A DNA stretch of 64,000 bases, taken from contig KV419402.1 in the NCBI GenBank assembly GCA_001630475.1, positions 460,255 to 524,254 of the forward strand, in the 5' to 3' direction. Position numbers and translations under genes: made by a program. Below are positions 55,681-56,553 of the stretch, in pieces. Positions within the stretch are counted from its first letter, which is position 1. Each line of letters opens with the position of its first letter. The notes under the pieces were generated by a model. The model saw only the letters and a program-made list of their open reading frames with translations, searched no databases and was not told the origin of the DNA. The stretch is from Sistotremastrum niveocremeum HHB9708. Taxonomy: Eukaryota > Basidiomycota > Agaricomycetes > Sistotremastrales > Sistotremastraceae.

Positions 55681-56553
55681 TTATATAGGCTTGATCTTGA
55701 AATGGAGAGAGATCAAAGAAAATATCAAGCACTATTGAAGAACGCGAGATACATATGAGAATGAGATCGAAAACGGCGTGGTTGACTGCGGCTTACTTTT
55801 AAGTCCTGTACAAGGTAATAGAACACTCGCAGCCCATCTGGATCCTCTGAGTCCTGGACATCAACCAGTGTACCGATTTTGCCGGTCTGCGTAACGTATA
55901 TGTTAGTGAGACTGATGGAGCGGTAAGAATTCACGCACCTCAAAGGCGATATGCTCGTTGCCAATGCGAATTTCTAGCTCCTGTTTTCCGACGATATTTT
56001 TCTTAGGCCAATTTGTGTCGTCTTCCCTGTAATTGGAGGGGTTGATCAGTACAGGGAGACGTTTCAGAATTATCCGAGGAAAGGGGACGTGGAGGTTGAC
56101 ACGAGAAAACGAGGAGGGGTGCAGGGCGCAGGGGGGAAAAGAACGACAGCTCACTTGGTGATATCGCTTGTCTCGACGATTCTCTTCAACTCTTTCACAA
56201 CAAGGGGCCCAATCCACACTAAGAAAGACAGGAATCAGGACTCAATCGCGATGAACACTAAGATAGAAAGGCGACGCACTCTCTTTTCGGATCAAACTGT
56301 CATTTCGATAATTCGAGTTGTTCGCGTAACGCAGACGTCCATGAGAGTATTCAAACTCCAGAAACTCGTGTCCGTGCTTTCCTGAATGTCCGGTACTGAA
56401 GAAGACCGCCAGGTGAATACGGCGTGTGGGTAAAAAGAGATAATAAAAACTTACTAGTATCTAGTGAGGGGCCCGCTACGTGAGTCGTAGCGGGAAGCTT
56501 TTTATTTAAGTTGCTTGCCTCAGGTAAAAAGGATCCTTCTCGACGGCTGCCAT
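55681..56553 (-). CDS. Mago nashi, exon-junction-complex core protein, with a 6-nt microexon
   Basis: Partner of Y14 in the exon junction complex, which marks spliced mRNAs. Exons (minus): 56553-56519, 56460-56455 (6 nt), 56395-56280, 56218-56155, 56026-55939, 55886-55797, 55731-55681; 450 nt, 149 aa, matching the family's ~146-150. Start MAAVEKDPFYLR, then YYTGHSGKHGHEFLEFEYSH, LRYANNSNYRND, GPLVVKELKRIVETSDITKE, GKQELEIRIGNEHIAFE, TGKIGTLVDVQDSEDPDGLR, FYYLVQDLK and the usual end LHFKIKPI. The codons for the invariant Arg-Tyr-Tyr can only be completed by ATACTA at 56460-56455, flanked by CACTAG and GTAAGT. The first intron has a GC donor (GCAAGC). Confidence 0.93.
56455..56460 (-). other. 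6-nt microexon of mago
   Basis: ATACTA, between acceptor CACTAG and donor GTAAGTTT. It completes AG|A TAC TA|T, giving Arg-Tyr-Tyr. Skipping it would join AG to TACC and replace these residues by a single Ser. Confidence 0.8.
56472..56494. repeat. Perfect 9-bp hairpin in the first mago intron
   Basis: CCCGCTACG, loop TGAGT, CGTAGCGGG, lying 12 bases upstream of the microexon in mago orientation. A stable stem here could bring the GC donor and the distant acceptor closer together. Confidence 0.6.

What the first reader, a model, noticed from the sequence alone, without database searches (positions are those of the whole stretch)
56455..56553. A 6-nt microexon in mago nashi between a GC-AG and a GT-AG intron
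Exon 1 ends ...TAC CTG AG and the third exon starts T ACC GGA. The highly conserved Arg-Tyr-Tyr-Thr-Gly-His of Mago can be made only by inserting ATACTA (56460-56455), which has its own acceptor (CACTAG) and a consensus donor (GTAAGT). The whole gene then totals exactly 450 nt. Exons this small are hard to define by normal exon recognition and rarely annotated. The gene concerned encodes a core protein that marks splice junctions, so splicing of its own mRNA could be a feedback point: skipping keeps frame (6 nt) but destroys a conserved site.
Basis: partly seen in the sequence, partly recalled or inferred. Interest (0 to 1): 0.78.

Follow-up and report, generated by a model that had tools for sequence, protein, structure and literature searches.

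The report
Conserved six-base microexon in fungal mago
In a mushroom-type fungus the mago gene, which encodes a core part of the protein tag left on spliced messages, has an exon only six bases long; related fungi carry the same tiny exon, and a number of deposited gene models miss it.

Summary
Of the one- and two-intron structures enumerated, only exon 1 + ATACTA + exon 3 gives the conserved FYLRYYTGH; the spliced CDS is 450 nt. New evidence comes from relatives. (1) Of 187 distinct homologues seen in two searches, 17 models lack exactly two residues here, with Ser (7) or Arg (10) at the scar, as expected if AG+T or CG+T is made by skipping a 6-nt exon; 2 of 120 mostly ascomycete hits show the same. 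(2) Of 41 read-through ORFs long enough to test, 32 encode the microexon with its AG and GT in another frame, 47-119 nt upstream of exon 3; shuffles average 2.5, maximum 10 in 2000 sets. Twenty run through exon 1, both introns and exon 3. So the microexon is widespread in Basidiomycota, perhaps older, and often mis-annotated. The GC donor looks derived; intron 1 also has a strong hairpin. Intron definition is the likely mechanism. Feedback is untested, but published work shows that the exon junction complex blocks donors close to a junction; this donor lies 6 nt away, and keeping intron 2 gives an immediate stop. No RNA data or relatives' DNA were available.

The parts
56519..56553 (-). mago exon 1, coding part (MAAVEKDPFYL + AG)
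56461..56518 (-). intron 1, 58 nt, GC-AG (GCAAGC...CACTAG)
   Evidence: usage not observed
56472..56494 (-). perfect 9-bp hairpin with 5-nt loop inside intron 1
   Evidence: (z -4.69 for the intron)
56480..56484 (-). CTCAC, branch-site-like; its A (56481) lies in the hairpin loop
   Evidence: sequence and fold; function inferred
56455..56475 (-). alternative 21-nt exon if the paired GTAG acceptor (56476-56479) were used; inserts SGPLT in frame
   Evidence: no evidence of use
56455..56460 (-). 6-nt microexon ATACTA
   Evidence: relatives
56396..56454 (-). intron 2, 59 nt, GTAAGT...CTTCAG
56280..56395 (-). exon 3 (T ACC GGA ...)
56155..56218 (-). exon 4
55939..56026 (-). exon 5
55797..55886 (-). 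exon 6
55681..55731 (-). exon 7 with stop (KIKPI*)

Best explanation
A real, normally included 6-nt coding microexon of the single mago gene, shared with many Basidiomycota and perhaps older, kept because its codons complete the Arg-Tyr-Tyr in the middle of strand beta-1. Each flanking intron (58 and 59 nt) is recognised on its own by intron definition, so the exon need never be defined as an exon. In this species the consensus GTAAGT intron 2 is probably removed first, fusing the microexon to exon 3, and the GC-AG intron 1 follows. Skipping would give an in-frame protein lacking two residues; keeping either intron gives an early stop. Shown: the sequence, the uniqueness of the solution, and the same element in relatives. 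Inferred: inclusion in mRNA, order of splicing, intron definition, age.
For: Only one enumerated structure yields FYLRYYT. RYY-type sequence in 101 of 187 homologues and in the two PDB Mago sequences shown. 17 of 187 models lack exactly two residues with S or R at the scar, and the 2-residue gap there is the commonest deletion in the 120 proteins (10). 32 of 41 read-through ORFs carry the microexon with AG and GT in other frames, against a shuffle mean of 2.5 and maximum of 10 in 2000 sets. 20 of them span exon 1 to exon 3, 19 measured with introns of 47-81 and 50-119 nt. Passages on short introns freeing microexons from PRP-40.
Against: No RNA evidence and no relatives' DNA. 9 of 41 read-through ORFs lack the signature. 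Of the 17 scars, the 10 with Arg would also fit a plain loss of Tyr-Tyr. In a fold of the whole region the acceptor of intron 1 and the donor of intron 2 pair with each other (probability about 0.9-0.97), which could hinder both. The GC donor and the hairpin make intron 1 look weak.
Confidence: 0.92

Rival explanations
1. Feedback switch built on the same microexon. EJC containing Mago, loaded upstream of the exon 1-microexon junction when intron 1 goes first, blocks the intron-2 donor 6 nt downstream. Intron 2 is kept, translation stops at the TAG made by microexon TA + GT, and Mago falls; low EJC relieves the block.
For: In human cells the EJC blocks donors up to 15 nt after a junction and represses cryptic microexons (PMC6224609, passages). 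Here the donor is at 6 nt. Retention of intron 2 reads LRY then stop. Short spacing is kept in relatives.
Against: The stop follows from any Tyr codon split TA|GT, so it is no sign of selection. If intron 2 goes first, as predicted here, the block is bypassed. In the cited work 5.3% of cryptic microexons responded and a competing donor was present. No expression data; my search on autoregulation listed no such case for mago.
Confidence: 0.1
2. The upstream GTAG acceptor is used, alone or as an alternative, giving a 21-nt exon and a protein with SGPLT inserted before RYYT; the intron-1 hairpin controls the choice.
For: It is in frame and keeps RYYT; the hairpin pairs this AG.
Against: It breaks FYLRYY; the AG is about 5 nt from the likely branch site and paired at all temperatures from 15 to 42 C; relatives' ORFs show an acceptor right before the 6 nt.
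Confidence: 0.04
3. No microexon: one 123-nt GC-AG intron joins CTGAG to TACCGG.
For: It is open in frame (LSTGH).
Against: It breaks a conserved motif and leaves the AG-NTAYTA-GT element in relatives unexplained.
Confidence: 0.02

Closest known systems
Conserved plant microexons of 1-15 nt (PMC8831610; abstract in listing and passages)
   Same: Tiny coding exons, conserved, often missed by annotation.
   Different: Plants, shown by RNA-seq; mago is not mentioned in the main text searched. Here fungi, and sequence evidence only.
Xlr2 microexon of Trichoderma virens (PMC11121469; abstract and passages)
   Same: A fungal microexon.
   Different: A regulated transcription-factor switch with RNA evidence; the mago microexon appears constitutive and essential.
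Short exons of Phanerochaete chrysosporium P450 genes (PMC1184071; passages)
   Same: Agaricomycete genes with small introns; shortest exon 6 bp.
   Different: A varied gene family; no deep conservation of one exon is claimed in the passages seen.
EJC-repressed cryptic microexons in human cells (PMC6224609; summary and passages)
   Same: A donor within 15 nt of the upstream junction.
   Different: Those are cryptic pieces of longer exons; here the microexon is needed and the gene encodes an EJC subunit.

Membership tests
Mago nashi (PF02792) | Match above the Pfam cut-off | tested here: met
   Three exon-level matches over the cut-off; 93% identity to P0001, a Pleurotus-named PF02792 protein
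Microexon | Internal coding exon of at most 15 nt with its own acceptor and donor | tested here: met
   6 nt, CACTAG before and GTAAGT after
Microexon | Included in mature mRNA | not testable with these tools
   No RNA data; indirect support from protein conservation
Conserved microexon | Same exon at the same place in relatives | tested here: met
   32 of 41 read-through ORFs and 17 of 187 models; read from translations, not DNA
GC-AG intron | GC donor, otherwise donor consensus, AG acceptor | tested here: met
   AG|GCAAGC...CACTAG; use not observed
Recursive-splicing exon (PMC6224609) | Exon start rebuilds a donor at the upstream junction | tested here: not met
   Junction reads CTGAG|ATACTA, no GT
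EJC-repressed microexon (PMC6224609) | Donor within 15 nt of the upstream junction | tested here: met
   6 nt
EJC-repressed microexon (PMC6224609) | Inclusion changes when the EJC is depleted | not testable with these tools
   Needs an experiment

The most novel reading that the evidence does not exclude
The mago microexon is an old EJC sensor. Because the second donor lies six bases from the first junction, the EJC that Mago helps to build blocks it, intron 2 stays in, and the message stops at the microexon's own TA|G. Fungi would have kept a six-base exon since at least the basidiomycete, perhaps the Dikarya, ancestor as an autoregulatory element of their splice-junction marker.
Probability: 0.1. 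Interest if true: 0.88.

Novelty: new member of a known kind. Interest (0 to 1): 0.6.

Why it matters
If right, one of the smallest coding exons is shared across a large fungal clade and sits in the gene for a protein that marks splice junctions. A number of deposited Mago proteins are then wrong by two residues or more, which matters for gene models, phylogenies and structural work. It offers a simple system, two introns of about 60 nt around a 6-nt exon, for asking how splicing handles exons too small for exon definition, and whether the exon junction complex controls its own subunit.

Tried and rejected
DNA of relatives: scans of viral contigs and genome contigs found no mago locus, so conservation was read from protein models and translated ORFs. 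Recursive exon: rejected, no donor rebuilt. Single-intron structures: five are open in frame, none gives RYYT. Inverted-repeat search of 56300-56700 reported nothing because its minimum length of 12 exceeds the 9-bp stem, which the fold and pattern search do show. Rfam: no match at gathering scores in the window. Hairpin as thermosensor: not supported, closed from 15 to 42 C in the model. Pairing of the intron-1 acceptor with the intron-2 donor (ACTAG-ATA-CTAGT): unlikely to be general, since the frame-A ORFs have Q or K before the 6 nt, hence CAG or AAG (Q also fits only CAG as an acceptor). A paper hit for '6-nt exon' concerns part of exon 2 in a DAO1 construct (PMC4624585 passages). Copies of intron 1 elsewhere in the genome: not answered.

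Literature: the ten answered searches listed no paper that by title or abstract reports this mago microexon. The library holds open-licence papers only; I read listings and the passages cited, no whole paper. The statement that fungal microexons had been tested experimentally only in S. pombe is from a passage of PMC11121469; I tried one original, which is not held. PMC3885619 gives MAGO exon numbers for plants, algae and animals, with none for fungi in the passages seen.

Limits: two searches used skip-form queries, so skip forms and 'ST' endings are enriched there; the upstream signature is not part of those queries. Only the best 120 hits were visible of 2336, 748 and 432. Taxon names are those of the hit tables; most read-through ORFs have none. 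The 19 sequences of alignment A1 were chosen by me among RYY-type proteins, skip forms left out, so their invariant RYY is not independent evidence.

Full report
What is there. On the minus strand at 56553-55681 lies a complete mago nashi gene of seven coding exons, the only PF02792 locus found in this 34.7-Mb genome. Its 149-aa protein is 93% identical over its whole length to P0001, a Pleurotus-named cluster. Exon 1 ends CTG AG. A 58-nt intron GCAAGC...CACTAG follows, then ATACTA at 56460-56455, then a 59-nt intron GTAAGT...CTTCAG, then T ACC GGA. The CDS is 450 nt with ATACTA and 444 nt without.

Is it more than chance. I enumerated one- and two-intron GT/GC-AG structures from the ATG to the end of exon 3 that reach the GHSGKHGHEFLEFEY frame without a stop. 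Five one-intron and 46 two-intron structures survive at a minimum intron of 40 nt; one alone gives FYLRYYT. AG-RTAYTA-G[TC] has a frequency of 0.00098 in like Markov sequence, and 1 in 200,000 with a GT[AG]AGT donor. The two PDB Mago sequences shown carry the same FYLRYY, and 101 of 187 homologues have xYYx before the GH motif. In the AlphaFold model of the Pleurotus protein (mean pLDDT 85.9) these residues lie inside the first strand, residues 10-17.

Relatives, first line: annotation scars. The 187 distinct homologues fall into 101 xYYx, 17 that lack exactly two residues, 41 with at least 22 residues of other upstream sequence, 22 with shorter such sequence and 6 without the anchor motif. 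The 17 are Leucoagaricus, two Mycena, Chiua, Serendipita, Dacryopinax, Naganishia, Kwoniella, two Vanrija, Cryptotrichosporon, two Trichosporon asahii records, three Malassezia and Tilletia horrida (names from the hit tables). Seven have Ser at the scar and ten Arg. Both intron positions are phase 2, so dropping the exon joins AG or CG to T and gives AGT (Ser) or CGT (Arg). A plain loss of Tyr-Tyr could give the Arg forms but not the Ser forms. Further named models are garbled at the same place: Ceratobasidium P0015, Antrodiella P0016, Scleroderma P0025, Suillus P0026, Russula P0030, Lentinula P0046 and P0063. In the 120 proteins a two-residue gap at this spot is the commonest deletion (10; the next, at the variable N-terminus, 6).

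Second line: read-through ORFs, mostly unnamed, that run from the introns into exon 3. In other frames AG-NTAYTA-GT must read [QKE]-[ILV]-L-V or [DGVA]-[TI]-S. Of 41, 32 show one of these, which puts intron 2 at 47-119 nt; residue shuffles give a mean of 2.51 and a maximum of 10 in 2000 sets. The nine without it are P0149, P0157, P0161, P0173, P0179, P0180, P0183, P0185 and P0187; P0149, a named model, has DTSQ further upstream, outside the scored range. Nineteen contain exon 1 as well, with intron 1 of 47-81 nt and intron 2 of 50-119 nt; P0134 is a twentieth (sequence). In 13 of the 20 the translation tells the first donor, and all 13 read GT; in seven it cannot be told (my reading). The GC donor of the window is therefore probably derived.

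Age. With a skip-form ascomycete-like query, 116 of the best 120 of 432 hits have xYYx before the motif, one more (P0307) has RYY with a changed motif, P0278 is garbled there, and two, Hapsidospora chrysogenum P0188 and Sporothrix thermara P0189, show the scar, FYLSSGH and FYLRSGH. Presence in the Dikarya ancestor is an inference that rests on these two models; I put it at about 0.55.

How it probably works. Introns of about 58 nt are expected to be recognised as units. In C. elegans, shortening a flanking intron frees a microexon from its need for PRP-40 (PMC8378409 passages). So the 6-nt exon need not be defined as an exon. The consensus intron 2 is likely removed first, leaving an ordinary intron 1. 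Intron 1 is odd: a perfect 9-bp hairpin (z -4.69; 0.00028 of composition shuffles have such a stem) holds a CTCAC branch-like motif in its loop and pairs the first AG after it. In a fold of the whole region the used acceptor also pairs, with the second donor, so the structure may slow splicing rather than guide it. Its role is open.

Feedback. In human cells the EJC blocks donors up to 15 nt after a junction and so represses cryptic microexons (PMC6224609 passages). Here the donor is at 6 nt. If intron 2 is kept, translation reads LRY and stops; if intron 1 is kept it also stops early; skipping keeps frame. Retention, not skipping, is thus the likelier control point. Against it, the stop follows from any Tyr codon split TA|GT, and intron-2-first order would bypass the block. 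I give it 0.1.

Known kinds. It meets the sequence definition of a microexon and of a GC-AG intron; inclusion in RNA could not be tested. It is not a recursive-splicing exon. Fungal microexons are known (PMC11121469, PMC1184071; passages), as are conserved, mis-annotated plant ones (PMC8831610; passages). I found no report of this one in the searches listed.

Noticed in passing
56472-56494: Perfect 9-bp hairpin in intron 1 with a branch-like CTCAC in the loop; the only match in the window at up to 3 mismatches.
   Followed up: partly
54373-55631 (+): Two overlapping ORFs matching DUF92 membrane protein (PF01940), convergent with mago; the second ORF ends 50 nt from the mago stop codon.
   Followed up: no
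4584-5441 (-) and 33070-33693 (+): ORFs matching Nup84/Nup100 (PF04121) and GMC oxidoreductase (PF00732).
   Followed up: no
P0145, P0166, P0175, P0178 (proteins): Four unnamed ORFs share a similar intron-1 translation (AWAKEL...SFAH...KILV), so intron 1 is itself similar among these relatives.
   Followed up: no
P0002 (protein): A Rhizoctonia solani model repeats YYTGHSGRHGHEFLEF in tandem; real duplication or annotation error not tested.
   Followed up: no
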